From positions 38,704,052-38,768,051 of the forward strand of contig CM040747.1 of the NCBI GenBank assembly GCA_022829145.1: 64,000 nt of DNA. Reading direction: 5' to 3'. The DNA comes from Albula goreensis (lineage: Eukaryota; Chordata; Actinopteri; Albuliformes; Albulidae). Every line of letters starts with the position of its first letter. The stretch's first letter is position 1. Below the pieces are notes generated by a model. The model did not search any database. It saw nothing but the letters and a program-made list of their open reading frames with translations, and was not told the DNA's origin. Positions 6,536 to 60,623 of this stretch are shown piece after piece. A program made the translations under genes and the position numbers.

Positions 6536-6563
6536 GGTTTTTGTACGGCTCTCTATCACTGTG
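6536..6563 (-). other. V1 recombination signal sequence (12-RSS)
   Basis: On the minus strand the V1 exon is followed at once by heptamer CACAGTG, a 12-base spacer (ATAGAGAGCCGT) and nonamer ACAAAAACC. Both elements match the RAG1/2 consensus. A 12-bp spacer on V is the kappa-type arrangement. The signal indicates that V1 can serve as a recombination substrate. Confidence 0.95.
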
Positions 6564-7149
6564 TGAACACATCACTACTGCTGATGTAGTGTTCACTCTG
6601 ACAGTAGTAATCTCCTGCATCTTCAGCCTGGACTCCACTGATGGTCAGAGTGAAGTCAGTCCCAGATCCACTGCCACTGAATCGATCAGGAATCCCTGAG
6701 TTACGTGATGTTGCCCAGTAGATCAGGAGTTTGGGAGCTTCTCCAGGTTTCTGCTGATACCAGGCCATATAGTGATAACCACCACTGGTGTACACAGCAG
6801 GGCTGGTTCTACAGCTCAGGGTGACAGTGTCTCCTATGAGAGCAGATTTACCAGCAGGAGTCTGAGTCACAGTCACCTGTCCTGTGGATTCTGAAGGGAA
6901 AAATAAAATAAATTTTAAAAATAAAATAAATACTTATATTATCCATAGTCACATTAGAATGTCACATTATTGCCCAGGCAGTTATTTAATATTTTTTAAT
7001 ACATTTACTTTTTATACTTCCATTCCATGAAAATTGAAGACAGTATAACAATTTGAATATGTTTTATGAATCTTACCCTGAATGTAGAAAGTGAGAGCCC
7101 AGATGAAGATGGTGATAAAAGTCATTGTTGCTGTGGGTTCCGTTGCCAT
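6564..7149 (-). CDS. Immunoglobulin light chain V segment V1 (kappa-like), leader + V exon
   Basis: This is a germline IgL variable segment for antibody light chains. The leader exon is 7149-7077 (73 bp; [19 protein letters not shown], a hydrophobic signal peptide, with a second Met at residue 9), with a GTAAG donor. The V exon is 6890-6564 (327 bp) after a TTCAG acceptor, and the phases match. The domain is complete: first Cys in [22 protein letters not shown], a kappa-like [15 protein letters not shown] segment, and DAGDYYC. CDR3 ends at the 12-RSS. There are no stops or frameshifts, so it looks functional. The sequence resembles teleost IgL type L1/L3. No J or C segment is seen nearby. Confidence 0.93.
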
Positions 7150-10959: not shown

Positions 10960-10987
10960 GGTTTTTGTACGGCTCTCTATCACTGTG
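10960..10987 (-). other. V2 recombination signal sequence (12-RSS)
   Basis: Heptamer CACAGTG, a 12-base spacer identical to that of V1, and nonamer ACAAAAACC directly follow the V2 exon on the minus strand. Confidence 0.95.
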
Positions 10988-11562
10988 TGAACACATAGTT
11001 ACTGCTGATCTCATGGTAACTCTGACAGTAGTAATCTCCTGCATCTTCAGCCTGGACTCCACTGATGGTCAGAGTGAAGTCAGTCCCAGATCCACTGCCA
11101 CTGAATCGATCAGGAATCCCTGAGATACGCGATGTTGCAGCATAGATCAGGAGTTTAGGAGCTTCTCCAGGTTTCTGCTGATACCAGGCTAGGCGGTGAT
11201 AACCACTATAGACATGAACAGCAGGGCTGGTTCTACAGCTGAGGGTGACAGTGTCTCCTATGAGAGCAGATTTACCAGCAGGAGTCTGAGTCACAGTCAC
11301 CTGTCCTGTGCATTCTGAAGAGAAGAATAAAAACACATTTATTTTATCCACAGGCACATTAGACTGTTACACTGTTGCCCAGATTGCTATTTTATACATT
11401 TATTTCATACAGTTATTTTAAGCTCAATACTTCAATTTCATAAAACTAGAAGGTCACATATCTCTTTGAATATTTTTCATGAATCTCACCCTGGATGCAG
11501 AAAGCAAGTGCCCAGATGAAGATGGTGATAAAAGTCATTGTTGCTGTGGGTTCTGTTGCCAT
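10988..11562 (-). CDS. Immunoglobulin light chain V segment V2 (kappa-like), leader + V exon
   Basis: The leader exon is 11562-11490 (73 bp, [19 protein letters not shown], then AFCIQG), with a GTGAG donor. The V exon is 11314-10988 (327 bp) after a CTTCAG acceptor. The frame is open throughout, with the conserved Cys, [15 protein letters not shown] and DAGDYYC. It differs from V1 mainly in the CDRs: [10 protein letters not shown] in place of [10 protein letters not shown] around CDR1, AATSRIS around CDR2 and [12 protein letters not shown] in CDR3. It appears intact and recombination-competent. Confidence 0.93.
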
Positions 11563-17274: not shown

Positions 17275-17302
17275 GGTTTTTGTACGGCTCTCTATCACTG
17301 TG
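17275..17302 (-). other. V3 recombination signal sequence (12-RSS)
   Basis: CACAGTG heptamer, a 12-base spacer identical to V1 and V2, and ACAAAAACC nonamer directly follow the V3 exon. Confidence 0.95.
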
Positions 17303-17852
17303 TGAACACAGGGCCACTGTGTACACTCTGACAGTAGTAATCTCCTGCATCTTCAGCCTGGACTCCACTGATGGTCAGAGTGAAGTCAGTCCCAGATCCA
17401 CTGCCACTGAATCGATCAGGAATCCCTGAGATACGCTGATTTACATACTTTATCAGGAGTTTAGGAGCTTCTCCAGGTTTCTGCTGGTACCAGTGTAAAT
17501 AGTTGTTGTTGTATACAGCAGGGTTGGTTCTACAGCTCAGGGTGACAGTGTCTCCTTTGAGAGCAGATTTACCAGCAGGAGTCTGAGTCACAGTCACCTG
17601 TCCTGTGCATTCTGAAGAGAAGAATAAAAAATAAATATTAAAATATTCTATGAGCACATTAGAATGTCACACCATTGCCCTGACAGTTATTTCATATGAT
17701 TAATTTCAGCCGTATACTTCCCTTTTATTAAAATCAAAAATATCATATCTATTTAAATATTTTTTTCAATGAATCTCACTCTGAATGCAGAAAGCGAGCG
17801 CCCAGATGAAGATGGTGATAAAAGTCATTGTTGCTGTGGGTTCTGTTGCCAT
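17303..17852 (-). CDS. Immunoglobulin light chain V segment V3 (kappa-like), leader + V exon
   Basis: The leader exon is 17852-17780 (73 bp) with a GTGAG donor. The V exon is 17611-17303 (309 bp), 18 bp shorter than the other three because CDR1 (VYNNNYLHW) and CDR3 (CQSVHSGPV) are shorter. The frame is open, with the conserved Cys, Trp and DAGDYYC. At the exon junction the codon reads Lys where V1, V2 and V4 have Glu, because the last leader base is A rather than G. It looks functional. Its upstream DNA lacks the 2.3-kb tail of cassettes A and B, so it is a more diverged or truncated cassette. Confidence 0.93.
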
Positions 17853-24453: not shown

Positions 24454-27400
24454 GTATGAATACGTGGAAGAGATTGTACTTTAATTAATACATTACCAAT
24501 GACTTAGAGCTGCAGTAAGAGGCTGAGGTTAACTGGAAGCTCTGTCTCCATGTGCTGTGAGTTAGAGCGGCAGTAAGAGGATGAGATTAACTGGAAGCTC
24601 TGTCTCCATGTGCTGTGAGTTAGAGCTGCAGTAAGAGGATGAGGTTAACTGGAAGCTCTGTCTCCATGTGCTGTGAATTAGAGCTGCAGTAAGAGGATGA
24701 GGTTAACTGGAAGCTCTGTCTCCATGAGCTGTGAGTTAGAGCTGCAGTAAGAGGATGAGGTTAACTGGAAGCTCTGTCTCCATGAGCTGTGAGTTAGAGC
24801 TGCAGTAAGAGGATGAGGTTAACTGGAAGCTCTGTCTCCATGTGCTGTGAGTTAGAGCTGCAGTGAGAGGATGAGGTTAACCTGAAGCTCTGTCTCCATG
24901 TGCTGTGAGTTAGAGCTGCAGTAAGAGGATGAGGTTAACTGGAAGCTCTGTCTCCATGTGCTGTGAGTTAGAGCTGCAGTGAGAGGATGAGGTTAACTGG
25001 AAGCCCTGTCTCCTTTTCCTTTTCACAGGGTCCAGGTGGAGAGAGCAGGATCACCTGTACCCTGCTGTATATCAGTGAAGAGTGACAGGTCAATGGAGCA
25101 ACCACCCACATTAAGAGGAGATCCTCCACCTTATCCAAGGTAAACAGGTTCATATTTACACTGCTGTTTCCTTATTCCTCACTCTTACAGGCTACAGTCT
25201 GGTGTCGGCAGAGTGGGGACACAGTTCCTCAGCACTTAGAAAAGTTTAATTTTATGGTTTTCCAAAGGAATTCATCTGAATCTGTGTTCATGTTGTGAAC
25301 GGTGTAATAAAGACTAAACGTTTTCATCACATTCTTCATTGTACTCAGCAGTCTTCAACTAATTTCTGATTAAATTAAGGCTTAATTCTGAATAAGTTGT
25401 GCAAATTTTGGAACCTTCGCTTATCAATAGATTTAAAGAAGAGATAAAGAAACTTTTTACATTTTGGATATCACTTACTTAACTGCATAATAAAATAAGG
25501 TATTCACTCCATGTGCTGTGAGTTAGAGCTGCAGTAAGAGGATGTGGTTAACTGGAAGGTCTGTCTCCATGTGCTGTGAGTTAGAGCTGCAGTAAGAGGA
25601 TGAGGTTAACTGGAAGCTCTGTCTCCATGTGTTGTGAGTTTGAGTTGCTAACGAGCATGAGATTAAAATGGAAATTAGTTCCTCCAAACTTTCTAATGAA
25701 ACGAACAACCAAGTTTATTGTTGAGAAGGAATGTTGGTAAGTTGATAATGCCTTGAATTGTTTGGCAATTTTCAACATCATTCACCAAATTATCTGTAAT
25801 AACAAAATATGCAATGTAATGTCTGTTTTGACTTTTTTGGTCCAGCAGGAAAGAGCAGGGTCACCTGTACCCAGCTGTCTTAGAGCTGCAGGAAGAGGAT
25901 GACGTGAAGACTTTCTCAGGATGGTGGAAATTTACCATCATCTCAGGATGGTTGTAGATGGTTGTTTGTGGTTTAGTGAACATGTTTTAGCTGTGACTCA
26001 GCCTGCTTGAATCCAGTGGCATCATACCTCACTCCCTCCTTCAGCATGTTAGATCGATTCAAGTGACCCACACCCTCTGTTTTTGTGAGGCCCTGTTTGG
26101 GCTGGCTCAGTTTGAAGCCTGGAGGAGACCTATCGTCAGTAGACCTGTGCTGTGTAGCTTCTAGGTATGAGAACGACATGCATTTCTGCCAGTCAACTAG
26201 CTGATGCTGAAGCTGACACATTATAGACAAATCTTTTTTTTTAATTGTATGATGAAGGATAATAACAAAATTAAGCCATGTGATCAGCACAGATCACAAG
26301 ATGAAAATGTTGTTCCATTTGGTGTGTACCAAAATATTGTGAGCTTCTTCGCTCACTGCACAGCTTAACGGAAGCTCAAACCCCTCAATTAACATGTTCC
26401 AAGACACTGATTAATAAGAGATTCTATTTAATGAAACAAGAAGTTTGGTTTTAGCAAAATAGCCTAAACATTCATCCACATTTGAACTTACACAGTTATA
26501 AAAATGTAGTAGGCAAATAAAAAATAGCAACCATAACAACAACAATTTTGTCATTGACCCACATATTGAACTCAAGCAAATAAAAAACCTAATAAAAACT
26601 TTTTTTACCCACTAAACTGTCGACCAACAATTGACAAATCGAAAAATTTGTTCACATCCCTCGTCGTTTTTGTGTCCTTTCTCCACACACTGAGGGTGTA
26701 ATTAGAGCCCAGGAGTCTCTCAGCCAAGTTTAGCTAGCCACATTGCTTACTTGGTTTGTGTGAGACATTGCCAAGTACTGCAGAATATGAAGAGAGGTAT
26801 CTGACAGTTTTCTACAGTCAACAACTGCATTTGCCATAAAAAGCATAACCCAGCTATCTGCTGGTACAGATTAAGCCGTGGCCTTACGCTGTCTCCAATT
26901 TTGTAATTTTGTAATATGGCCTGATAAAAGGTTTTATTTTCCTGAAGGGAAGTATTTTTAAGTCAGTTGTTTGTAACTGATACCACAGAAATAATTGACC
27001 AGTTTTGTCTGTGTCACATGTGTCTGTTTCCCCAGACACTGCTGGGATATTTGCTATAAATATGAGCAACCTTTATCACTCCAGAAGCTCCACTCATACC
27101 TGGAGTTTTGGAGGTCTTACTCTTTTCTCCTGACTGTCCTGTTTTAATCAACACCTGCATTTTGAGACACTTCCCTATATTATCAGTTTATTTAAAATGT
27201 TCAACACCCCATACTACAATGACTGGAGGTTCACTTTGGTGGGGCAATGTTTGCACAGCCTAAACAGGTAAAAATAGACTGTAAACCAGTAAAATTATCT
27301 GTCTCATTGCTCTGTTGTGCCCTCTACTGGCAAACTGGGCAGCTAATTGGAGGAGCCACATGTATGGGCAAAAGGTTCACAGTGTGGGGCTGAGAACATC

Positions 27401-30400
27401 ATTTGAGAAAACACCCTCATTCCCTGTTGGATGAGACATGGGCAGGAAGGAGTTCCTTTAAGAACTCTTTATCATTAAATGGGGTTGTGGCATTATGAGC
27501 AAAGCCATCAATGTATGTATTGACTTCCCTTTGATGTGTTTACATGAGCAGGTACCTTCAGTGGACAAAAAGCCAATCCCATTCTGCAACAATTTTCATA
27601 TGGACAGTTTGTTTTTCAAAAAGGCTCTGTCCATATGTCTCTGTTAGGCGTAACATATCAACAACTTCAGCTGCCTTTATCTTAACACAAAGAAAAAGCA
27701 TGTGTAATCAAGTCTCATTATAAGGAAATGAAAATTTCTTGAACGATGTCAGGACGCAGTATGAACTCAAGTGCAGACAGGGATGAGATGAACCAGAGTT
27801 TATTAAGAGGGGCAAATCCAAAAAACAGAGTCAAAAACAGGCACAGGGTCAAACCAGAAGAGCACGGTATCAGGGCCAAAAACAGAATCCAAAGCAGTAG
27901 TCAAAAACAGGCAAAGTTCGAACCAGGTAAACACAGCAATCAGGCAGAGACACAATCCAAAATCAGAAATCGGGGAAAACAGGCAAGAATCAAAACAGGC
28001 AGGTCAGAACAGGAAAAGGCTCATAGCACAACTGATCACAGGGAATACAGAGACAAACTCGCACAGAACAAACACAAGACAGGGTTTAAATGCACAGACT
28101 AACGAGCCAACGAGACACAGGTGCACAATAGGGCAGGTGAAACAAATGGGTAATCAACTGGGAAGGTAACAAGGAGGGCGGGGCAGACACAAGGGGAAAT
28201 GAAAACAAAAGCACATGGACAGGGAACACAAAAACAAAAACACAGCATCAGACAGCCTTACTGACAAACGATTATCTTTTGTTTCACGCCCCAAAGGCTA
28301 TTTCATTGGTTAATTGTATGGCTAGGTACGTTTTACCCACAGGTTCACTGTTTGATATAAGTATGAGTGACCCAACCTACCCCCAAACACCCTTGCCCCA
28401 CAAACCCCCCACTCCCCGCGTGAGTGTACCTGGTTTTTACAAGACAGAGGTCTAATGATTGAGCTTCTCTAAAACATTTTAATGTACTCTTCTTATGTAT
28501 TTTTTTTCTAAATTCACTGTTTCTTTCTGTTGGATCTCTGATTCCTCACAAACCTCTTTGCAGGGTCCAGCAATCAGCAGAGTCCAGCTGTCTGGAACAG
28601 AAGAGTCCAGAGAAGAGAGAGCAGTGTATGGATGTAAACCCCACAAAAAAGGTGTGATATCTCTTTATCTATGTATTAATCATCATGGGGTTTGGCTTGG
28701 AGAATACTCTTTATTTCACCTCTCTTTTCAGGCTCATAACTATTAGAATGACTAACCTCTCACTCTGATGTGGTGTAATTGCACATATTCAAAGGAAGTG
28801 CTCTGCTAAAAAGCCCTAATTCTAATGAATCGCAATTTCATACAGATTACAGTATAGGCACATGTTTGTTATGGGACTCAAACTCAAAACAATTCAATTA
28901 CTCTCAGGGAAAGCATGATTAATCTGAACTACTGCCTCTACAAAGTCATCAATCAAAAGCAAAAGCTGAACTTTAAAGAACTGGAGTGAATTATTGCACA
29001 TCTCTTTATGTGCTTATTTCAGCCTCTCTGATGCAGCACACCTCTTCATGTGTTTATTTCAGTCACTCTGATACAGCACACCTCTTCATGTGTTTATTTC
29101 AGCCTCTCTGATGCAGCATCTCTTCATGTGTTTATTTCAGTCTTCTCTTATACAGAACACCAGCAGTCACTATGATACAGCACACCTCTTCATGTGTTTA
29201 TTTCAGTCTCTCTACAGCATACAGTGTTTATTTCAGTCACTCTGATACAGCACACCTCTTCATGTGTTTATTTCAGTCACTATGATACAGCACACCTTCA
29301 TTCATCTCTCTGTGTTTTCATTTCAGTCACTCTGTGTTTATTTCACAGCACACCTCTTCATGTGTTTATTTCAGTCTCTCTGATAAAGCACACCTCTTCA
29401 TGTGTTTATTTCAGTCTCTCTGATACAGCACACCTCTTCATGTGTTTATTTCAGTCACTATGATACAGCACACCTCTTCATGTGTTTATTTCAGTCACTC
29501 TGATACAGCACACCTCTTCATGTGTTTATTTCAGTCTCTCTGATAAAGCACACCTCTTCATGTGTTTATTTCAGTCTCTCTGATACAGCACACCTCTTCA
29601 TGTGTTTATTTCAGTCTCTCTTATACAACACACCTCTTCATGTGTTTATGTCAGTCTCTCTGATGCAGCACACCTCTTCATGTGTTTATTTCAGTCTCTC
29701 TGATACAGCACACCTCTTCATGTGTTTATTTCAGTCACTCTGATACAGCACATCTCTTCATGTGTTTATTTCAGTCTTTCTTATACAGAACACCTCTTCA
29801 TGTGTTTATTTCAGTCTCTCTGATACAGCACACCTCTTCATGTGTTTATTTCAGTCTCTCAAGCACACTTTGATGAAGTTGAAGGAGGAGGAGTTGAAAC
29901 AGTTTCACAGCCATCTGAGTCAGTATTACCCAGAATGCTCTGAGACACAACAGGAGGACATTGAGGCCCTGCATGTAGTTGAGAAGATGCTGGAGACCTG
30001 TGGCAGTGAGGGATCTCTGGAGATCACACTCCACATCCTGAGGAAAATGAAGCAGAAGGATCTCGCGGACTCACTGGAGAGAGATGAGCAGAAGAGTAAG
30101 ACACTATTTTGTGTAAATCAGTCATTAATATATCAGTATTAGCAACTGCAAACAAGCCACTAAAGAGTGAATGTGCTTGTGCTGTGACTATTCCTTAGTA
30201 AACCTGGCCCTGAGAGAGATGTGCAACACACTGGGCCCTTATGTAAGGATATAAATGTTGTAAAAAGTTTATTAATGCAGATTTAAAAAGCTGTGGCAGA
30301 ATCAGTTTAGCAGTTTAATGTCTGAAAGAGAAGCAGATAGAGCAAAGTACTGATTTAAAGCTTTGATCATGCACTGACCAATGAGGATGTTTTCCACATT

Positions 30401-33400
30401 CCCTTTAAATGAGTGGATGCTTCACATATCCATATTTTTTCATGTTTGTTCGTGCAGGTTTTCTGCCTCTACTTTTCTGTATCTCTTATTCCCTTAGTGT
30501 GGTGTCAAATGAGCACCACAGGCAGGTGCAGTTCTTCATAAAGTGGCTGTAGTGCTCATTTAACACCAGAATAATGGATATGTTAAAATAATAGTAAGAG
30601 AGCACATGCCAGATAACACAGAAAAATATGACTGTGCCAAACATACCGTATTTTAGTGTTCTGTTCCAACGTCTGAAAAGCATTTTCAGCATTTCAGCAT
30701 CACGAAAATAATACATCATTCCACCAACAGCCACCAAATGAAACCCAATTTATGATATTATTATCTGAAATTTATTATCTGAAATTTCATCTAAACTGAG
30801 TGGCCCTCTGCATCAGGTTGTGAAGCTGCCTAATCACTTAATCTCATAGATTCATGTAATCTCTTTATCTCATTTCACATCGTTGGTAAGACCTTATGCT
30901 CTATAGTTCCACTGCTCTGGTGTGTCTTCATGAACAAAGCAGAATCTATTTCTGTTCACCATTTGTGCAGATTGTTGGCGTGATGTGTAACACACTGTGT
31001 GACAGACTTGTGTAAAATATTGTGTCAAGGGGAAAAGTTTATAACAATTTGTTCAATTGATTAGTTTTTTATATATATGAGTAAATTATATGTCATATTT
31101 CCTCTTCTCAGAAAAACTTTCAAGAACCCAACAGACACTGAAATCTGATCTGAAGAAGAAGTTTGAATGCATATTTGAAGGTTTGGTACAGCAGGGCCAC
31201 CCAACTCTCCTCAATGAGATCTATACAGAGCTCTACATCACAGAGGGAGGAGGTGGGGGGGTCAATAATGAACATGAGGTCAGACAGATTGAGGCAGCAT
31301 CCAAGAGACAAACCACACAGGAGACTGCAATCCTCTGCAATGACATCTTTAAACCTTTACCTGGACAGGAGAAACACATCAGAACTGTGCTTACAAAGGG
31401 CATCGCTGGCATTGGGAAAACTGTCTCTGTGCAGAAGTTCATTCTGGACTGGGCAGAAGAAAAGCCAATCAGGACATTAATTTAATCTTCACTCTTCCTT
31501 TCCGAGACCTGAACTTGAAGAAGGAGAGAGAATTTAGTCTGATGCAACTCCTCCAGCACTACTTTCCACAGCTGAAAGAGATTGAAAGTGTTGAACATGA
31601 TGAAGTCAAAGTTGTGTTCATCTTTGATGGTCTGGATGAGTGTCGACTTCCTCTAAATTTTCGGAAAAATAAGATCTGCAGTGATGTAACAGAGTCAGCA
31701 TCAGTGGACGTGCTGCTGACCAACCTCATTTTGGGGAATCTGCTTCCCTCTGCTCTCCTCTGGATCACCTCCCGACCAGCAGCAGCCAATCAGATCCCTC
31801 CTGAGTGTGTCCACCAGGTGACAGAGATACGAGGGTTCAATGACCACAGAAGGAGGAGTACTTTAGGAAGAGAATCAGAAAAAGAACCTGGCCAGCAGAA
31901 TTATCTCACACATAAAGTCATCCAGGAGTCTCCACATCATGTGTCACATTCCAGTCTTCTGCTGGATTTCTGCTACAGTTCTGGAGACATTGTTGGGCAA
32001 AACAGACAGTGGAGAACTGCCCAGAACTCTGACTGAAATGTACACACACTTCCTGCTCATTCAGACCAATGTGAAGAATCAGAAGTATCATGGCACCAAT
32101 GAGACAAACCCAAAGAAGATCTCAGCATCAGATGCAGAAATGACCCTGAAACTGGGGAAGCTGGCTTTTCTACAGCTGCAAAAGGGCAATCTGATATTCT
32201 ATGAAGAGGACCTGAGAGAGAGTGGCATTGATGTCAGTGAAGCTTCAGTGTACTCTGGGGTGTGCACAGAAATCTTTAAAGAGGAGTCTGGGTTGCATCA
32301 GGAGAAAGTCTACTGCTTTGTGCATCTGAGCATTCAGGAGTTTCTGGCTGCCTTGTTTGTGTTTCATTCATGTGTAAATAAGAACAGAAATGCACTCAGA
32401 TCAGAAAAGTCAAAACCTGAGGGTGACAGAATGCTGCTGAATTCCAATAATAATATTAAGCTGTCTGAGTTACACAGGCCAGAAGGGTCAACACCGGAGG
32501 GTGACATGATGCAGCTGTCTGAGGTACACAGGAGTGCAGTGGATCAGGCCTTACAGAGTAAGAATGGACACCTGGACCTTTTCCTCCGATTCCTTCTGGG
32601 CCTCTCACTGGACTCCACTAAGACTCTCTTGAGACAGAGAGGTCATCTGAACCAGACAAGAAGCAGATCAGAGAGCATTGAAGAAACAGTCCAGTACATT
32701 AAGCAGAAGATCAGTGAAGAGTCTTCAGCAGAGAGGACCATCAATCTGTTCCACTGTCTGAACGAACTGAATGACAACTCTCTCGTGGAGGAAATCCAGA
32801 CTTCCCTGACATCAGGAAGACCTTCTGATAAAGAGCTGGAACCACACCAATGCTCAGCTCTGGCCTATGTGTTACTGATGTCAGAGGAGGTCCTGGATGA
32901 GTTTGACTTGAAGACGTACAACACATCAGCAGCAGGTCAGCAGAGACTGGTACCAGTAGTGAGGAACTGCAGGAAGGCCAAGTGAGTACTGTTACATCAT
33001 TCATAATGCAGATGATTGACACTGATATTTGCATAAACAGTTTATAATTGTGTGAGAATAAACTGCATGAACATAGCTCACCTATATCATGACCAGAAGC
33101 CTGTGTTAATAAATAATATTTCAGAAGGTAGTATTTCTGTTCTGTTTTCATATACCCCTAGGTGTATGTTGTAAAGAAAAACCAATGGTAAAATACTGTA
33201 ATCTGAATGTGATATTGTAGTTGAACAATTGGCCATGTAGGATGCAGACAATAAATCGTAAAATTAATTGTAATTAATTCAACAGCATTTTTATGTGTCA
33301 AACCTCATTGCACTTTAGGTCCTCATCTCCACAGCATCCTCTCTGAATTTGGAGTTTGTGCTCTAGGTATAGAGGTAGGGGTTGGTGGGGGGGTGGGGTG

Positions 33401-45400: not shown

Positions 45401-48400
45401 CTTTTGGCCCCGACACTAAACTACTTACACTTCTGAACAAAGTATTTTTTTTTTTATTCTATTTCCATAAACAAAACTTCATTCGCCACTTCAGAACTGT
45501 TTTTTTCTTCTTCTGCCTTTACTCTGCCACCTCTTTACATTACCAGCAATGGGATTTCAAGCTCCTTATATGGTATTTCAGGGGCGTCGATTTATGCTTA
45601 TCGAAAATTTTGTGAACGTGCTTGTCATTTATGATTGATTGGTATTTATCAACATACGGACGAAATACGAACAAATGATGTGTTTACGCATGTTTGATAT
45701 ATCCGTTATGTTAGTTCGTAGCCATTGACACATAAATTTACACACAGTTTAAATATTGATGAATGAGGCCCACTGAGTGACGAATTCTGGTCTTTGTCAC
45801 TTTTCACTGCACAGTTGTTTTCTAAATAGAATGATTTAATGATGTCATATACTTTACCCCCAATACCACTTTGAAGTATTCTATAACTTAATCCCTGGTG
45901 TCAAATAGAATCAAATGCTTTTTGAAAGTCAAAGTATGGAAAGATGTTTCCTTTGTTAATTTGGTGAACATGTTTGTCTATGAGGGTGTATAGGGTGTAA
46001 ATATGATCTGTTGTGTGATGTTTTGGGAGGAATCCAGTTTGACTCAAGACACTGTGCTCGGAAAGGAAGTTTATAATTCGTGAATTAAGGATGCTACAAA
46101 ATAACTTCCCCAGATTACTGCTTACACAGATGCCTCGGTAATTATTGGGGTCTAATTTATCTCCACTCTTATAAATTGAGGATATAAGCCCTTGGTTCCA
46201 GGTGTCAGGGAGCAGCCAGTACTTGGTGATAGACTGAATAATTTCAGTAGGGCCTCTTGTATAAAATGGTTATTATTATTTCAGCATCTCATTATTTATG
46301 TAGTCAAAACCACAAGGCTTTCCTAGTTTTAGTTTTTCCTAGTTGTCTCTTACAGTGATTTGAATGATTAAGGGTGATTAATAATACCAATAATGAATAA
46401 CAATGCTTTTCTTCAAGTTTTTGTGGAATTGTCTATGTGTTACCAAAGGGAATTCACAGCCACAGCCACAGTGTGAGCTTTGCTTGCTGTAACTTCATTC
46501 AACTGCAGTAGACAGTGGTGTTTGAGAACATGTCCATCTAGTGGTGAATGTGGGAAGTGCAATGATTTAAGTTTGAAGCTGCTTGGATAGGGGCCCCTTT
46601 ATCTGTTTTGTCAGGGGCCTCACTCCCTCCTTCTTCTCCAGGGGCCCCACTCTCTGCCTGTTTTCTAAAAACTGAGTAGCATTTTTCATTCTAAAAAAAC
46701 ACATTTCATACAGCCAGATTATATTATCACAAAATATTGAATATGCAAAAATCTATCCTGACACATGAGGGCACCACAAAATGTAGAGTAAATGTGTTAT
46801 TCAGCACATGGGAAGCAGAAAATATGAGGATAATGCTATTCCTCACAGTTAAATGCAGGTGAAGTGTATATAGAGCAAGAACAAACAGATCGCACAATAT
46901 GTTCATCATCAACAGTCCCAGCACAAGGCACCTATTAAAAGTGATCAATCTCATAAAATGACTTAAGCCATAACCTTTAATTTCAAAAATGTATTTAAAT
47001 TACAATATTAATGGCAAACCAACAGGAATTACCATCCCCTTTTAACAATACAATTATTGATAATTAGTATTGAGAATCTAACCAGTTTCTGAAGGCTTTG
47101 TTCTATGAATAGAATGGCTACAGTCAATGTTTATGTGAACAACCAGTCATATCCAATCATTCAATGACAAGCAGTCATAAATACAAATCTGCATTATTCA
47201 GAATGATAAAAATGATAAAAATATGTGTATGAAAGTGAATCTGAGTGTGTGTAGATGACTTAGTCAGAACACAAATAGAGTGTGTGTGTGTGTGTGTTTT
47301 CTCCACAGGCAGGGATGGTGTACATTTATTGTGTGTGTGTGTGTGTTCTCTCCACAGGCTGGGTTGGTGTATATTTACAGTGTGTGTGTGTTCTCTCCAC
47401 AGGCTGGGTTGGTGTATATTTACAGTGTATGTATGTTCTCTCCACAGGCTGGGTTGGTGTATATTTATTGTGTGTGTGTGTGTGTGTGTTCTCTCCACAG
47501 GCTGGGTTGGTGTATATATAGTGTGTGTTCTCTCCACAGGCTGGGTTGGTGTATATTTACAGTGTGTGTGTGTGTTCTCTCCACAGTCTGGGTTGGTGTA
47601 TATTTATTGTGTGTGTGTGTGTTCTCTCCACAGGCTGGGTTGCTGTAATCTCACAGAGGGCTGCTGTGATGATCTGGCCTCAGTCCTGTATTCTCCCCAC
47701 TCAGAGCTGAGAGATCTGGAGCTCAGAGACAACGAGCTGCAGGATTCAGGAGTGAGAGCGCTCTCTGCTGGACTGGAGGACCCACTCTGTAAACTGCAGA
47801 GACTGGGGTGAGTAACAAACTCAAACCCCCTCTTTGATGAAGGGCTCAAATGTGACTAAATATCCCAATAATATTAACAATGACTCAGGCTAACGCTTCC
47901 TGTTCTCTTTGTGCAGTCAGTCTGTGATGTTAAAATGTGTGTTTTTCCAACAGCTGCTGTTCGGAATAGCAATTACAGTGTTCATAAGGGAATAAAATAC
48001 TGAATTGTTACTTTTGAAAATTATGAATTCAGTATTACAATATGAATTACATACCTTTAAATACAGAAAACAAAGAAGTAAATGAGTCAGTCCCACTCAT
48101 TAAAATAATGATAATAAGGTGTATACTACTAATTCCACAGCCCTGTCATTTTATATTCAGATTCTGTAAGGTGTTTAACACACTGCTTTGTGTTTGATAA
48201 TGATAATCACCAATTCCACAGCCCTGTTATTTTATATTCAGATTCTGTAAGGTGTGTTTGTCCAGAGCTGGTCTCCTTCTCTCTGCAGGCTGTCAGGCTG
48301 TCGAGTCACAGAGAGAGGTTGTGATTCTCTGGCTTCAGCTCTGCGTTCAAACCCGTCACACCTGAGAGAGCTGGATCTGAGCTACAATCACCCAGGAGAC

Positions 48401-50072
48401 TCAGGAGTGAGAGCGCTCTCTGCTGCTAAACTGGACACACTTACACTGCTGTAAGTACAGAGAGTTTCCACACTGCACCTCATAGACACACTGCTGGAAG
48501 TACAGAGAGTTTCCACACTGCACCTCATAGACACACTGCTGTAAGTACAGAGAGTTTCCACACTGCACTTCACAGACACACTGCTGTAAGTACAGAGAGT
48601 TTCCACACTGCACCTCATAGACACACTGCTGTAAGTACAGAGAGTTTCCACACTGCACCTCATAGACACACTGCTGTAAGTACAGAGAGTTTCCACACTG
48701 CACCTCATAGACACACTGCTGTAAGTACAGAGTTTCCACACTGCACCTCATAGACACACTGCTGTAAGTACAGAGAGTTTCCACACTGCACCTCATAGAC
48801 ACACTGCTGTAAGTACAGAGAGTTTCACACTGCACCTCATAGACACACTGCTGTAAGTACAGAGAGTTTCCACACTGCACCTCATAGACACACTGCTGTA
48901 CGTACAGAGAGTTTCCACACTGTGTGTCACTCAGTCACTGTCTGTTCTGCTGTTCCTACAGTGTGGACCATGGAGGAGAGAGCATGAAAAAACCAGGACC
49001 CAGGAAATGTGAGTCTGTCAGCACTGAACACTCACTCCCCCCATTTCCTCTCCTCCCTCTCTCCCTCTTTTTTCACATCTATTTTCAACTCTTTTTTCCA
49101 GTCCCTCTCTTCACCATTCTCTCTTTCACACTCAGACAGAAGTCTGTCCATACATACAGCACTGTGTGTGTGTGTGTGTGTGTGTTTCTCATGGTCATTG
49201 AGTTCAGTTTGTGTTTGTTTGCAGATGGTGTTTACAAACATTCACCCAGATTTAGACACCTACACATAAACACACACACAAACAGCCCCACATACTCCAA
49301 ACACACATGTGAAAACACTCACACAGAGGTGCACACACATACAAACACAACCCTGTTTCTCTCTTTCTCTCACACACACTCAGTCACACATTATGAGATG
49401 AATATTAATAATGATAATTAATCTCATTAATGTCTCTGGTTTGCAGATGGCTGTCAGCTCACACTGGATCCAAACACAGCACACAGAAAGCTGTCTCTGT
49501 CTGAGGAGAACAGGAAGGTGACACGCACAGAGAGAGAGCAGCCATATCCTGATCACCCAGAGAGATTTGACCGCTGGCTCCAGGTTTTGTGCAGAGAGAG
49601 TCTGTCTGGACGCTGTTACTGGGAGGCTGAGTGGAGTGTGTCTGAGTGGGGAGTGGTTTATATAGCAGTGACATATAAAGGAATCAGCAGGAAAGGAGGG
49701 GGTTATCACTATAGGTTTGGACGGAATAAAAACTCCTGGAGGCTGGAGTGCTCTAAACGCAGTTACTCTGTCAGGCACAATAAGAAACAAACACACATAC
49801 CTGTCCCCCCCTCCCCCTACCGCAGAATAGGAGTGTGTGATGATGATGATGATGATAGTGATGATGAAGATGTTGAAGGAGTGTGTGTGTACAGAGTAGG
49901 AGTGTGTGTGGACCGTCCAGCCGGCACTCTGTCCTTCTACAGCGTCTCTGACTCTGACACACTGACCCTCCTGCACAGATTCCACACCAACTTCACTGAA
50001 CACACACCCCTCTGTGCTGGGTTTAGATTGGGGGGACTTAACACCTCAGTATCCCTGTACCAACTGAAGTAG
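24395..50072 (+). CDS. NLR gene: PYD-FISNA-NACHT-LRR-B30.2 protein (NLRP/NLRC3-like)
   Basis: A cytosolic innate immune sensor of the expanded fish NLR family. Coding exons are 24395-24453, 25029-25139, 28564-28651, 29855-30095 (pyrin-like), 31112-32981 (FISNA-NACHT), 37037-37297, 39140-39313, 47634-47807, 48289-48450 (LRR), 48962-49008 (linker) and 49447-50072 (B30.2, stop TAG). Every junction has GT/AG ends and compatible phases. The total is about 1270 codons. By analogy with the family, NACHT would oligomerise, the pyrin-like domain would recruit an adaptor, and the LRR and B30.2 parts would sense ligand. The NACHT exon holds three one-base frame slips that cancel in sum, so the gene is either a pseudogene or intact with consensus errors. 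Introns hold minisatellites at several splice sites. Confidence 0.85.
24504..25015 (+). repeat. 58-bp minisatellite in NLR intron 1 (9 copies)
   Basis: Units start at 24504, 24562, 24620, 24678, 24736, 24794, 24852, 24910 and 24968, exactly 58 bp apart. Each contains TTAGAGCTGCAGTAAGAGG and TTAACTGGAAGCTCTGTCTC. The array fills nearly the whole intron and its last unit runs into the acceptor of exon 2. Two more copies and a decayed third lie at 25510-25650. Confidence 0.95.
25029..25139 (+). CDS. NLR exon 2 (short N-terminal exon)
   Basis: A 111-bp exon entering and leaving in phase 2. It encodes [14 protein letters not shown] and [12 protein letters not shown], the VQxERAxSPxPSCxSMKSDxSM motif repeated at the N terminus of many fish NLRs. 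It is flanked by TTTTCACAG and GTAAAC. Because it is phase-symmetric it can be skipped or duplicated without breaking the frame. Confidence 0.85.
25510..25650 (+). repeat. Second block of the 58-bp minisatellite
   Basis: Two good units starting at 25523 and 25581 and one decayed unit at 25639, in NLR intron 2. They match the intron-1 array and precede a truncated copy of exon 2, which suggests that intron array and exon were duplicated together. Confidence 0.85.
25842..25885 (+). pseudogene. Truncated copy of NLR exon 2
   Basis: The sequence reads [14 protein letters not shown], the start of the exon-2 motif, then stops resembling it at CTTAGAGCTGCAGG, where it joins minisatellite-like sequence. 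A credible acceptor is lacking. It is a relic of an exon-2 duplication. Confidence 0.7.
25886..27741. other. NLR intron 2 interior
   Basis: No gene or transposon was recognised. Short open frames only. Confidence 0.5.
27747..28266 (-). mobile_element. Solo LTR, family 2 (in NLR intron 2)
   Basis: The element is 520 bp. In minus orientation it begins TGTCAGTAAGG and ends GTCCTGACA. The 5-bp target-site duplication AACGA is present at 27742-27746 and 28267-28271. It is the same family as the LTR at 34555-35100 (shared TGTCAGTA start, CCTGACA end and T-rich body). The 118-codon open frame through it is not a gene. Confidence 0.9.
28564..28651 (+). CDS. NLR exon 3 (short N-terminal exon)
   Basis: An 88-bp exon after a CTCTTTGCAG acceptor. 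It enters in phase 2 and encodes [19 protein letters not shown], then [11 protein letters not shown], ending in phase 0 at GTGTGA. It starts with the same RVQ motif as exon 2, so it is a diverged member of the same exon family. Confidence 0.75.
28999..29854 (+). repeat. 40-bp minisatellite carrying a 3' splice site in each unit
   Basis: About twenty units of 40 bp, a few truncated. Each carries CTCTGAT (branch-point-like), CACACCTCTTCATGTG and TTTATTTCAG, then TCTCTC or TCACTC. The last TTTATTTCAG is the real acceptor of the pyrin exon at 29855, whose first bases are TCTCTC. Because 40 is not a multiple of 3, the array is open in long stretches and yields spurious frames such as [12 protein letters not shown]. 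Confidence 0.95.
29855..30095 (+). CDS. NLR exon 4: pyrin-like (death-fold) domain
   Basis: A 241-bp exon, phase 0 in and phase 1 out, GTAAGA donor. It encodes an all-helical domain: [65 protein letters not shown]. The spacing and the final ILRKMxQxDLAxxLE signature fit a pyrin (PYD) domain of fish NLRP-type proteins, which would recruit ASC-like adaptors. A CARD is less likely on this signature. Confidence 0.85.
30096..31111. other. NLR intron 4
   Basis: No repeat, transposon or gene recognised. It ends in a CTCTTCTCAG acceptor. Confidence 0.6.
31112..32981 (+). CDS. NLR exon 5: FISNA-NACHT domain with three frame slips
   Basis: A 1870-bp exon, the size usual for the fish NLR NACHT exon. 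FISNA starts at [20 protein letters not shown]. Walker A is GIAGIGKT at 31399-31422. Walker B is [12 protein letters not shown] near 31611-31645. Sensor-like [15 protein letters not shown] follows near 31759, and the winged-helix and helical region ends with [18 protein letters not shown]. The frame shifts by one base near 31467, 31843 and 31883, together restoring frame. The rest, to 32981, is open. Domain order and motifs are otherwise complete. It ends in phase 2 at GTGAGT. Confidence 0.9.
32982..34549. other. NLR intron 5, first part
   Basis: No recognised gene. A 109-codon minus-strand open frame (33715-34044) and GC-richer DNA at 33300-33600 may be an old transposon, but no domain or terminus could be identified. 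Confidence 0.4.
34555..35100 (+). mobile_element. Solo LTR, family 2 (in NLR intron 5)
   Basis: The element is 546 bp, begins TGTCAGTATTGG and ends AGTCCTGACA, with the 5-bp duplication CACAT at 34550-34554 and 35101-35105. It is in opposite orientation to its relative at 27747-28266. The long open frame on its minus strand is not a gene. Confidence 0.92.
36290..36640 (+). pseudogene. Gag/PNMA-like retroelement relic, copy 2
   Basis: Same relic as at 1690-2085, plus orientation, with the same TGA inside the frame after the FPSSIL segment. It lies in NLR intron 5 upstream of the first LRR exon. Confidence 0.4.
37037..37297 (+). CDS. NLR exon 6: LRR exon with an extra repeat (261 bp)
   Basis: Acceptor TTTCTTTCAG and donor GTGAGT. 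It encodes three leucine-rich repeats, 87 codons, where the family norm is 58 codons. The extra unit is a nearly exact 87-bp internal duplication: [20 protein letters not shown] occurs twice. It remains phase 2 to phase 2, so the frame is kept. Its counterpart at 261-434 has only two repeats. Confidence 0.9.
37540..37880 (+). pseudogene. Gag/PNMA-like retroelement relic, copy 3
   Basis: Third copy of the relic, with the same TGA and a further small deletion after PVQEQ. It lies between LRR exons 6 and 7. Confidence 0.4.
39140..39313 (+). CDS. NLR exon 7: LRR exon (174 bp)
   Basis: A standard two-repeat LRR exon: [40 protein letters not shown]. Acceptor TTTCTTTCAG, donor GTGAGT, phase 2 in and out. 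Exon and flanks are a tandem copy of exon 6 and its surroundings, about 2.1 kb away. Confidence 0.9.
39481..40059. other. NLR intron 7, first part
   Basis: No gene recognised. Contains a short GTGCGTGC/GAGCGAGC simple repeat near 39715-39750. Confidence 0.5.
40060..41262 (-). mobile_element. LINE 3' portion (same element as 45790-46300)
   Basis: The minus-strand open frame at 40192-40632 (146 codons) is the C-terminal part of a non-LTR retrotransposon ORF2: [20 protein letters not shown], then the zinc-knuckle-like [20 protein letters not shown]. The 3' end near 40065 has the GCCAATAAAGCACCTTG-type tail seen in fish LINEs. The upstream part is separated by a Harbinger insertion and a composite repeat. 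The clade is probably Tx1/L1-like, uncertain. Confidence 0.75.
41266..43578. mobile_element. PIF/Harbinger fold-back element
   Basis: The element is 2313 bp, starts GGGCCTCATTTATAAACC and ends with its inverse, flanked by a 3-bp CTG duplication (41263-41265 and 43579-43581). The two arms, about 41266-41960 and 42895-43578, are long inverted copies of each other. The middle holds the rest of a decayed transposase. It is inserted in a LINE. CWG-type 3-bp duplications are known for some Harbinger families. Confidence 0.88.
41800..42270 (+). pseudogene. Harbinger transposase fragment
   Basis: Two plus-strand frames hold an N-terminal part (41800-42003) and the DDE_4-type core [16 protein letters not shown] (41952-42137), followed in a shifted frame by [19 protein letters not shown]. 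Stops and frameshifts break it, and the C-terminal part with the last acidic residue is missing. The N-terminal part is present again, inverted, at 42900-43060. Confidence 0.8.
43582..43690 (-). mobile_element. LINE internal sliver
   Basis: A short LINE-like stretch left between the Harbinger element and the next insertion. It continues the sequence context broken at 41262. Confidence 0.45.
43690..45770. mobile_element. Composite repeat block with a Harbinger-like right end
   Basis: The block ends at 45770 in GATGAATGAGGCCCA, matching the Harbinger-type terminus of its neighbour. The segment 43965-44640 is a copy of the dispersed repeat at 62695-64000. The left end has no matching terminus and no transposase is visible, so this is a truncated or composite non-autonomous insertion. 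Confidence 0.5.
43965..44640 (+). repeat. Dispersed repeat, copy 1
   Basis: Shares with 62695-64000 a series of blocks in the same order: AAGGCGCAAACT, TTCTTCCGGACGTATCTCC, TTACCGGACTTGACATTTTG, and CTCGGCAAGC followed by TCTGGAACTCTATATCT. No open frame of note. Transposon class unknown. Confidence 0.75.
45790..46300 (-). mobile_element. LINE reverse-transcriptase fragment (upstream part of 40060-41262)
   Basis: Minus-strand frames, with breaks, read [20 protein letters not shown], then [19 protein letters not shown], then [10 protein letters not shown], the conserved N-terminal blocks of a non-LTR reverse transcriptase. The catalytic FADD-type region is missing, presumably lost within the inserted block at 43690-45770. 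Confidence 0.75.
46301..47244. other. NLR intron 7, last part
   Basis: No gene or repeat recognised. It runs into the splice-site minisatellite. Confidence 0.5.
47280..47633 (+). repeat. Minisatellite repeating the acceptor of LRR exon 8
   Basis: Seven units of about 40-55 bp, each with a GT microsatellite, TTCTCTCCACAG and the first exon bases GCTGGGTTG (small variants), then TGTATATTTA. The eighth copy is the true acceptor at 47632-47633. Unit lengths vary with the GT run. The frame of exon 8 stays open upstream through the array to 47245. Confidence 0.93.
47634..47807 (+). CDS. NLR exon 8: LRR exon (174 bp)
   Basis: Acceptor TCTCTCCACAG, donor GTGAGT, phase 2 in and out. It encodes [20 protein letters not shown] and [20 protein letters not shown], two leucine-rich repeats more diverged from exons 6 and 7 than those are from each other. 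Confidence 0.9.
48289..48450 (+). CDS. NLR exon 9: last LRR exon (162 bp)
   Basis: Acceptor TCTCTGCAG, perfect donor GTAAGT. It encodes [20 protein letters not shown] and [20 protein letters not shown], ending in [10 protein letters not shown]. It is 12 bp shorter than the standard unit because the end of the second repeat is condensed. Phase 2 in and out. Confidence 0.88.
48446..48912 (+). repeat. 45-bp minisatellite repeating the donor of LRR exon 9
   Basis: About eleven units of 45 bp (two a base or two shorter). Each carries ACACTGCTGTAAGTACAGAG and TTTCCACACTGCACCTCA. Donor-like GT positions are 48451 (real), 48541, 48586, 48631, 48676, 48721, 48764, 48809 and 48853. The copy near 48496 reads GG and the last, at 48898, reads GTACGT. 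The array begins inside the last exon bases and fills most of intron 9. Confidence 0.95.
48962..49008 (+). CDS. NLR exon 10: linker between LRR and B30.2
   Basis: A 47-bp exon after TGTTCCTACAG, encoding [15 protein letters not shown], the short linker found before B30.2 in fish NLR proteins. It enters in phase 2 and leaves in phase 1 at GTGAGT. Confidence 0.85.
49447..50072 (+). CDS. NLR exon 11: PRY-SPRY (B30.2) domain and stop
   Basis: A 626-bp terminal exon after a TTTGCAG acceptor, ending in TAG at 50070-50072. [23 protein letters not shown] and [62 protein letters not shown]. An acidic insert ([11 protein letters not shown]) encoded by a GAT microsatellite at about 49838-49872 lies between two copies of an RIGVC/RVGVC strand. 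The domain is otherwise complete. B30.2 is the presumed ligand-binding end of fish NLRs. Confidence 0.92.
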
Positions 50073-60042: not shown

Positions 60043-60070
60043 GGTTTTTGTACGGCTCTCGATCACTGTG
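60043..60070 (-). other. V4 recombination signal sequence (12-RSS)
   Basis: CACAGTG heptamer, a 12-base spacer with one change from the other three (ATCGAGAGCCGT), and ACAAAAACC nonamer. Confidence 0.95.
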
Positions 60071-60623
60071 TGAACACAACACTACTGCTGATCACATGTG
60101 CACTCTGACAGTTGTAATCTCCTGCATCTTCAGCCTGGACTCCACTGATGGTCAGAGTGAAGTCAGTCCCAGATCCACTGCCACTGAATCGATCAGGAAT
60201 CCCTGAGTTACGCCGATTTGCATAGTAGATCAGGAGTTTAGGAGCTTCTCCAGGACTCTGCTGATACCAGTGCATGTAATGATAACCACTGTAGAAGGTA
60301 ACTGCAGGGTTGGTTCTACAGCTCAGGGTGACAGTGTCTCCTATGAGAGCAGATTTACCAGCAGGAGTCTGAGTCACAGTCACCTGTCCTCTGGACTCTG
60401 AAGAGAAGAAGAGGAAAACAACACACATTAGAAACAAAACATGAATAAATATATTTTTATGAATCTAATAACAAAATACAGGAAAATACATGTTTTTCAA
60501 CAAATATACAGTATAGTCACACATGTATTTGATTGCTTTATAAATCTTACCCTGAATGGAGAAAGCGAGTGCCCAGATGAAGATGGTGATAAAAGTCATT
60601 GTTGCTGTGGGTTCTGTTGCCAT
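60071..60623 (-). CDS. Immunoglobulin light chain V segment V4 (kappa-like), leader + V exon
   Basis: The leader exon is 60623-60551 (73 bp; [19 protein letters not shown], then AFSIQG), with a GTAAG donor. The V exon is 60397-60071 (327 bp) after a CTTCAG acceptor. The frame is open, with the conserved Cys and [15 protein letters not shown] (Ser replaces the usual Lys). The last framework reads DAGDYNC, so Tyr before the second Cys is replaced by Asn. CDR3 is [12 protein letters not shown]. Apart from the YNC change it looks functional. It lies about 42 kb beyond V3, on the far side of the NLR gene. Confidence 0.92.

What the first reader, a model, noticed from the sequence alone, without database searches (positions are those of the whole stretch)
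28999..29860. Array of about twenty complete 3' splice sites in front of the pyrin-domain exon
Seen directly: each 40-bp unit carries a branch-point-like CTCTGAT, a pyrimidine-rich stretch and TTTATTTCAG, followed by the first exon bases. The last unit is the real acceptor of the PYD exon. The intron end thus holds a ladder of near-identical acceptors about 40 bp apart. Inference: use of upstream copies would add multiples of 40 bp and shift the frame two times in three, so the array could tune or vary the N terminus that couples the sensor to its adaptor. I do not know of a described case for NLR genes.
Basis: partly seen in the sequence, partly recalled or inferred. Interest (0 to 1): 0.8.

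Follow-up and report, generated by a model that had tools for sequence, protein, structure and literature searches.

The report
Splice-acceptor ladder before fish NLR exon
In a large family of fish immune-sensor genes, the short DNA segment that marks where one exon starts has been copied many times in a row; most extra copies would put an early stop in the protein, so the array is most likely a tolerated, slightly risky repeat rather than a fine tuner.

Summary
28996-29860 carries 21 acceptor-like sites before a pyrin-domain exon (29855-30095), 15 of 20 spacings exactly 40 bp. It is a family feature: in the same genome 48 of the 50 best PYD matches (window included) and 8 of 8 at 59-70% identity have it, with up to 31 upstream rungs; 1,092 rungs genome-wide. 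A more distant PYD gene has one copy of the unit, so the working acceptor probably seeded the ladder. The same gene has a second acceptor ladder (8 sites) and a donor ladder (11 units, 10 with GT); those units occur 555 and 1,127 times. Upstream AGs are not clearly more conserved than other A/G positions, while the last rung is invariant. Best reading: a minisatellite born at a splice junction, tolerated because the exon-proximal rung is used, with some leak into stop-bearing transcripts. Splicing was not observed. Donor ladders have a human precedent (ABCA7); my searches showed none for acceptors. The window's own gene has a frame-broken NACHT exon.

The parts
28564..28651 (+). N-terminal exon before the ladder, 88 nt, enters in phase 2 and leaves in phase 0 (AAAAAAG|GTGTGA)
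   Evidence: sequence; splice sites read from sequence, no transcript
28996..29854 (+). acceptor ladder: 21 TCAG sites, unit TCTCTCTGATACAGCACACCTCTTCATGTGTTTATTTCAG
29815..29854 (+). last rung, taken as the working acceptor of the PYD exon; unit positions 34-40 show no difference in the last rung of 48 loci (one of them, L052, is scored so only past an insertion)
29855..30095 (+). pyrin-domain (PYD) exon, 241 nt, phase 0 in, phase 1 out
   Evidence: Pfam PYRIN; sequence
31112..33000 (+). FISNA-like start, NACHT, winged-helix and HD2 exon; open frame interrupted twice in the window copy (end approximate)
   Evidence: ORFs, Pfam NACHT, NOD2_WH, NLRC4_HD2, first break compared with other loci
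47283..47633 (+). second acceptor ladder, 8 CCACAG sites with (GT)n, before an LRR exon
47634..47807 (+). LRR exon served by the second acceptor ladder (donor GTGAGT at 47808)
   Evidence: LRR_6, E 0.00036, below Pfam's cut-off
48289..48450 (+). last LRR exon
48443..48922 (+). donor ladder: 11 copies of a 45-bp unit carrying ACTGCT|GTAAGTACAG (one reads GGAAGT, one GTACGT)

Best explanation
A minisatellite born at a splice junction and shared by a gene family. Seen: a 40-bp unit, whose first six bases equal the first six of the exon and whose end is the acceptor, stands in variable number before almost every PYD exon that I read in this NLR family. Inferred: it arose once, in an ancestor of the family, by a tandem duplication between TCTCTC upstream of the branch point and TCTCTC at the exon start; length then changed by slippage or unequal exchange, and copies spread with gene duplication. 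Inferred: the spliceosome mostly uses the exon-proximal rung, because sites nearest across the exon are favoured where flanking introns are long, and the array is tolerated for that reason. Use of an upstream rung from a phase-0 exon gives a stop codon at once in most cases, so the ladder can mainly leak transcripts into truncation or decay. The donor ladder at the last LRR exon is the mirror image: reading past the first donor gives TAA at once.
For: Ladder in 48 of the 50 best PYD matches, window included, and in 8 of 8 at 59-70% identity. 1,092 rungs genome-wide against 0 for the reversed pattern; the 100 places listed, checked by eye, lie within 3 kb upstream, same strand, of a PYD match. 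One unit only, 31 of 39 bases alike, in L080 (about 51% identical PYD); ladder rows plus two single-acceptor rows form one group against 8 others, support 98/89. 475 of 513 upstream rungs stop within three codons. Last rung: 0 of 336 cells differ at unit positions 34-40, upstream rungs 1.9%. Upstream AG not clearly more conserved than other A and G positions (exact p 0.2). L025 and L046 have a single acceptor. Carranza 2022 (PMC9225289, abstract and one section read): sites closest across the exon are favoured under exon definition.
Against: No transcript was examined. In Carranza 2022 long flanking introns only reduce the preference for the upstream acceptor, so upstream rungs of equal strength may be used more than I assume. 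Branch-point and 3'-end positions of upstream rungs are about half as variable as the rest (2.5% and 1.9% against 4.1%; base-stratified permutation p 0.015, positions chosen after a first look), also in the distal third, which may mean weak selection on the rungs or reseeding from the constrained last rung. Nearly all copies read keep a ladder although single acceptors exist, which a purely neutral repeat does not explain by itself. The invariance of the last rung leans on the aligner (L052 has an insertion there) and on the choice of loci; L078, outside that set, has lost the last AG. The tree is drawn with a midpoint root on 80 columns and its bootstrap had not settled.
Confidence: 0.6

Rival explanations
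1. Dose control: each upstream acceptor (and each downstream donor) competes with the proper site and diverts a share of transcripts to an immediate stop, so rung number sets how much full-length sensor each gene makes.
For: Upstream rungs with AG read into a stop within three codons in 475 of 513 cases; upstream counts range from 0 to 31 among 50 loci; stops follow both the acceptor and the donor rungs; splice core about half as variable as the rest.
Against: No expression data. AG alone shows no significant extra conservation (p 0.2); donor rungs show none (1.4% against 1.6%, 104 units). In human ABCA7 use of a donor rung stays near 2% and does not depend on array length (PMC5954066, section 21).
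Confidence: 0.15
2. N-terminal tuning, including a phase-adapter version: a donor of another phase reads in frame from the rung one or two units upstream.
For: From a phase-2 donor the penultimate rung is open and in frame in 41 of 48 loci, from a phase-1 donor the rung before it in 38 of 45; exon 2 of this gene (25029-25139, by eye) leaves in phase 2. At the LRR ladder 3 of 7 upstream rungs in the window are in frame and open (62, 77 and 92 codons).
Against: From a phase-0 exon only 1 of 513 is open and in frame. The phase-adapter needs exon 28564-28651 to be skipped, which is not known. A 40-bp unit with a stop in one frame gives this pattern without selection.
Confidence: 0.08
3. Recombination joint: arrays at module borders let PYD, LRR or B30.2 modules be exchanged between paralogues without damaging a splice site.
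For: Ladders lie between N-terminal exons and PYD and after the last LRR exon; exon shuffling and gene conversion are described for the zebrafish family (PMC4852459, passages). The segments on either side of array plus PYD exon (A and D) correlate with each other (Spearman 0.60, 22 loci) although the PYD exon correlates with neither, as if the PYD block were exchanged; within chromosome C7 the A-D value falls to 0.27, p 0.11, 17 loci.
Against: Distances are as uncorrelated across the array (0.016) as across the array-free border after the PYD exon (0.012) and between the two halves of that exon (-0.06), so nothing singles out the array; 22 of 50 loci, low power; the same control on halves of segment A failed to compute.
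Confidence: 0.07
4. Redundant landing platform: many branch points and pyrimidine tracts raise the chance that U2AF and U2 snRNP engage this intron, strengthening inclusion of the PYD exon.
For: Most rungs carry a branch-point-like CTGAT and a pyrimidine-rich stretch; the core is somewhat conserved in upstream rungs.
Against: L025 and L046 have one acceptor; upstream sites may compete as much as they help.
Confidence: 0.1

Closest known systems
ABCA7 intron 18 VNTR (human; PMC5954066, passages and section 21 read)
   Same: Tandem unit (25 bp) starts at the exon edge and includes the real splice site; use of the next unit adds one unit and gives a stop; copy number varies.
   Different: Donor, not acceptor; one gene, polymorphic among people, not a feature of a whole gene family; there junctions were measured.
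6-16 / IFI6 minisatellite with multiple splice donor sites (Turri, Cuin and Porter 1995; only the citation seen; paper not held)
   Same: By its title, a minisatellite that provides several splice donors in an interferon-induced transcript.
   Different: Donor sites in a single gene (gene name and details recalled, not read).
Tandem acceptors NAGNAG (PMC3250501, search listing and start of abstract only)
   Same: More than one acceptor at one exon.
   Different: 3 nt apart; here whole acceptors about 40 bp apart, most with their own branch-point-like site and pyrimidine tract.
Zebrafish NLR-B30.2 family (Howe 2016, PMC4852459, passages read)
   Same: NACHT, LRR and B30.2 modules on separate exons, death-fold domains in some groups, last LRR nearly invariant, hundreds of copies, gene conversion.
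   Different: The main text holds no word beginning with 'minisatellite' or 'splice' ('splicing' was not asked for); a ladder is not mentioned in the passages seen.

Membership tests
Splice-site-containing VNTR (ABCA7 / IFI6 kind) | tandem unit spans the exon edge and repeats the real splice site | tested here: met
   acceptor; donor; by sequence, no transcript
Splice-site-containing VNTR (ABCA7 / IFI6 kind) | copy number differs between individuals | not testable with these tools
   one genome; copy number differs between paralogues
Splice-site-containing VNTR (ABCA7 / IFI6 kind) | extra units are used as splice sites | not testable with these tools
   no RNA data
Splice-site-containing VNTR (ABCA7 / IFI6 kind) | repeated site is a donor | tested here: not met
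   the PYD ladder repeats an acceptor; the ladder of the same gene at 48443-48922 does repeat a donor
Teleost NLR-B30.2 (FISNA-NACHT) genes | PYD exon in front of a NACHT exon, then LRR exons | tested here: met
   Pfam PYRIN, NACHT, NOD2_WH, NLRC4_HD2, LRR_6
Teleost NLR-B30.2 (FISNA-NACHT) genes | FISNA domain and C-terminal B30.2 exon | not tested
   seen by eye only: FISNA-like start at 31112, PRY-like start near 49448; not run against Pfam
Teleost NLR-B30.2 (FISNA-NACHT) genes | intact reading frame in the window copy | tested here: not met
   the NACHT exon lies in three pieces in two frames; of 27 loci with enough sequence, the window included, 25 are open over the first break, that is 25 of 26 others

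The most novel reading that the evidence does not exclude
A whole receptor family carries splice ladders at two or three module borders that set, gene by gene, what share of transcripts ends in a stop before the signalling PYD or after the LRRs; repeat-length mutation could then change the dose or module content of well over a hundred immune sensors without touching coding sequence.
Probability: 0.12. Interest if true: 0.85.

Novelty: new variant of a known kind. Interest (0 to 1): 0.55.

Why it matters
Acceptor ladders on this scale are a natural experiment on how the spliceosome picks one of many near-identical 3' splice sites: dozens of paralogues in one nucleus with 0 to 31 extra rungs before nearly the same exon. 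If extra rungs leak, repeat length is an unrecognised source of expression and isoform variation in a large immune gene family, and gene models that begin the PYD exon at a wrong rung may be in error. If they do not leak, that shows how strong exon definition is.

Tried and rejected
Recombination-joint idea: Mantel tests on four segments showed no special decoupling at the array; the outer flanks correlate (0.60 in 22 loci, 0.27 with p 0.11 in the 17 on C7), which leaves exchange of the PYD block open but does not point to the array. N-terminal tuning: rejected as the main reading after the stop-codon count. Selection on upstream AGs: no clear signal; donor rungs none. PDB sequence search of the PYD gave only pentatricopeptide chains over 28-29 residues, judged chance. 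Assembly artefact: considered unlikely because dozens of separate loci show ladders of different length; not tested with reads. Literature: the listings of nine searches showed no acceptor ladder and no splice-site minisatellite in NLR genes; I opened few of the listed papers, and subscription papers are mostly not held. PMC4039745 (C. elegans minisatellites near alternative exons) and PMC3039753 (DDX3Y, MSY2) were read in passages and are different things. PMC11192531 (zebrafish NLR copy number) was read in passages; no word there begins with 'minisatellite' or 'splice'.

Rows dropped or limited: upstream units with at least 36 of 40 positions (46 loci) were counted; the last-rung count uses 48 of 50 loci, L025 and L046 being left out, and scores L052 as intact past an insertion. 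Mantel tests used the 22 of 50 loci having all four segments. Of 150 scored PYD matches (187 candidates) I read 66: the best 50 by rank and 16 chosen for low identity; 84 were not fetched. Of 150 scored last-LRR matches (922 candidates) I read 12, all with identical protein. For the donor and LRR-acceptor units I did not check place by place that the rungs lie in NLR genes.

Full report
What is there. The region 28996-29860 holds a 40-bp minisatellite whose unit, TCTCTCTGATACAGCACACCTCTTCATGTGTTTATTTCAG, contains a branch-point-like CTGAT, a pyrimidine-rich stretch and an acceptor AG; its first six bases equal the first six of the exon. I count 21 acceptor-like sites, 18 with exact TTTATTTCAG, 15 of 20 spacings being 40. 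The last is the acceptor of a pyrin-domain exon, 29855-30095 (Pfam PYRIN E 1.1e-13). The exon before it, 28564-28651, ends in phase 0 and the next begins at 31112, giving a coherent frame ...[13 protein letters not shown]...DEQK|KKLSRTQQ... (from sequence, no transcript). The gene is a fish NLR with NACHT, winged helix, HD2 and LRR domains and, by eye, a FISNA start and a PRY-like start. Its NACHT exon lies in three pieces in two frames; of 27 loci with enough sequence, the window included, 25 are open over the first break. The window copy is therefore probably a pseudogene or carries sequence errors, and the argument below rests on the family.

A family feature. The PYD exon finds 150 scored matches in the genome. 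I read 66. Of the 50 best, the window's own among them, 48 have at least one upstream rung with AG and 45 at least two; counts run from 0 to 31. L025 and L046 have one acceptor. All 8 read at 59-70% identity (tblastn) have ladders. L079 and L080 (55% and 51%) and six more distant PYD genes have none. L080 has one copy of the unit, 31 of 39 bases alike. In a tree of the 66 PYDs the ladder rows and the two single-acceptor rows form one group against the other eight (98/89; 80 columns, midpoint root, bootstrap not settled, many open forks). Genome-wide, a 36-base piece of the unit with up to two mismatches occurs 1,092 times, its reversed control 0 times; 100 places were listed and, checked by eye, all of these lie within 3 kb upstream of a PYD match on the same strand. 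The simplest reading is that the ladder began once, from the working acceptor, at the base of this family, and that its length has changed often since.

More ladders in the same gene. 47283-47647 repeats the acceptor CTCCACAG of an LRR exon eight times; 48443-48922 repeats the donor ACTGCT|GTAAGTACAG of the last LRR exon in eleven units, ten of them with GT. The donor ladder is present in 12 of 12 loci read (2 to 34 units within about 1.5 kb, the longest cut by the end of the locus); its unit occurs 1,127 times in the genome, the LRR acceptor unit 555 times, reversed controls 0; where these rungs lie was not checked one by one. In those 12 loci an LRR acceptor motif occurs 0 to 7 times in 1.5 kb upstream, 0 in three of them, so that ladder is less regular.

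What upstream rungs would do. From a phase-0 exon most rungs read TCT CTC TGA. Of 513 upstream acceptors in 50 loci, 475 stop within three codons, 505 before the PYD exon, 7 reach it out of frame and stop, and 1 (L026) is open in frame (phase 0 assumed from the window). For other donor phases one rung each is mostly open: the penultimate for phase 2 in 41 of 48 loci, the one before for phase 1 in 38 of 45. Exon 2 of this gene ends in phase 2, so skipping exon 28564-28651 together with use of the penultimate rung would restore the frame; this is a testable oddity, not evidence. At the donor ladder, reading past the first GT gives TAA at once. At the LRR acceptor ladder three of seven upstream rungs in the window are in frame and open.

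Are upstream rungs kept by selection? In 488 full upstream units, 2.5% of cells at the branch point, 1.9% at unit positions 34-40 and 4.1% elsewhere (position 3 left out) differ from the consensus; the distal third looks the same. A base-stratified permutation gives p 0.015, but I chose the positions after a first look. AG alone against other A and G positions gives p 0.2. The last rung has 0 of 336 differences at positions 34-40 in 48 loci, L052 being scored so only past an insertion; L078, outside this set, has lost the last AG. Donor rungs show no difference (1.4% against 1.6%, 104 units). I read this as no more than weak constraint, or reseeding from the constrained last rung.

Mechanism. 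Tandem duplication between TCTCTC at the start of the unit and TCTCTC at the exon start would give this array (inference). Its tolerance follows if the exon-proximal rung is chosen. Carranza and others (PMC9225289; abstract and the 3' splice-site section read) report that sites closest across the exon are favoured under exon definition; for 3' sites of similar strength the upstream preference is reduced when flanking introns are long. Introns here are about 1.2 and 1.0 kb. Equal rungs may therefore leak. In ABCA7, where a VNTR repeats the donor of exon 18, retention of one unit was about 2% of transcripts and did not depend on length; it brings a premature stop, and stop-bearing transcripts rose with cycloheximide, while skipping of the next exon did rise with length (PMC5954066, section 21). 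That is the best yardstick for what to expect.

Rivals tested. A recombination-joint role found no specific support: distances upstream and downstream of the array are uncorrelated, but so are those across an array-free border and within the PYD exon, in 22 loci. The outer flanks, upstream exon and FISNA-NACHT start, do correlate (0.60; 0.27 with p 0.11 within C7), which would fit exchange of the PYD block between them or short conversion tracts in general. Dose control is possible and unproven.

Novelty. Minisatellites that repeat a donor are known (ABCA7; 6-16/IFI6 by its title). The listings of nine literature searches showed no ladder of acceptors and none in NLR genes; the passages seen of two zebrafish family papers do not mention it. 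I therefore call it a new variant of a known kind: acceptors, more than a thousand rungs, across a gene family, with a donor ladder in the same genes.

Noticed in passing
48443-48922; L059-L070: Donor ladder at the last LRR exon, 45-bp unit, 11 units here, in 12 of 12 loci read; 1,127 rungs in the genome.
   Followed up: yes
47283-47647: Acceptor ladder of an LRR exon with a (GT)n-rich unit, sites 39-53 bp apart, 8 sites here, 555 rungs in the genome; three upstream rungs are in frame and open.
   Followed up: partly
24500-25013 and 25507-25666: 58-bp minisatellite fills most of intron 1 and has related copies in intron 2; unit holds GCAGTAAGAGG, a donor-like string, and the array ends about 15 bp before an acceptor.
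   Followed up: no
48289-48450; list: The 54-aa last LRR exon is identical at protein level in 41 of 150 scored genome matches, window included.
   Followed up: no
31112-33000: NACHT exon of the window copy changes frame twice; 25 of 26 other loci with enough sequence are open over the first break.
   Followed up: partly
L078, L025, L052: In L078 the last rung reads TTTATTTCGG, so the usual acceptor AG is lost; L025 and L052 have lost it too but show a CTCTTTCAG just downstream.
   Followed up: no
G000 C5:1251368-1254236: Longest PYD ladder among the 100 places listed, about 2.9 kb, with many 38- and 40-bp spacings.
   Followed up: no
6559-6933, 10983-11366, 17298-17666, 60066-60464 (minus strand): Immunoglobulin light-chain-like V segments lie around the NLR gene (read by eye from translations).
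   Followed up: no
28470-31560 and paralogues: Halves of the PYD exon give uncorrelated distances and many incompatible site pairs (78 of 120), as if short conversion tracts were frequent.
   Followed up: partly
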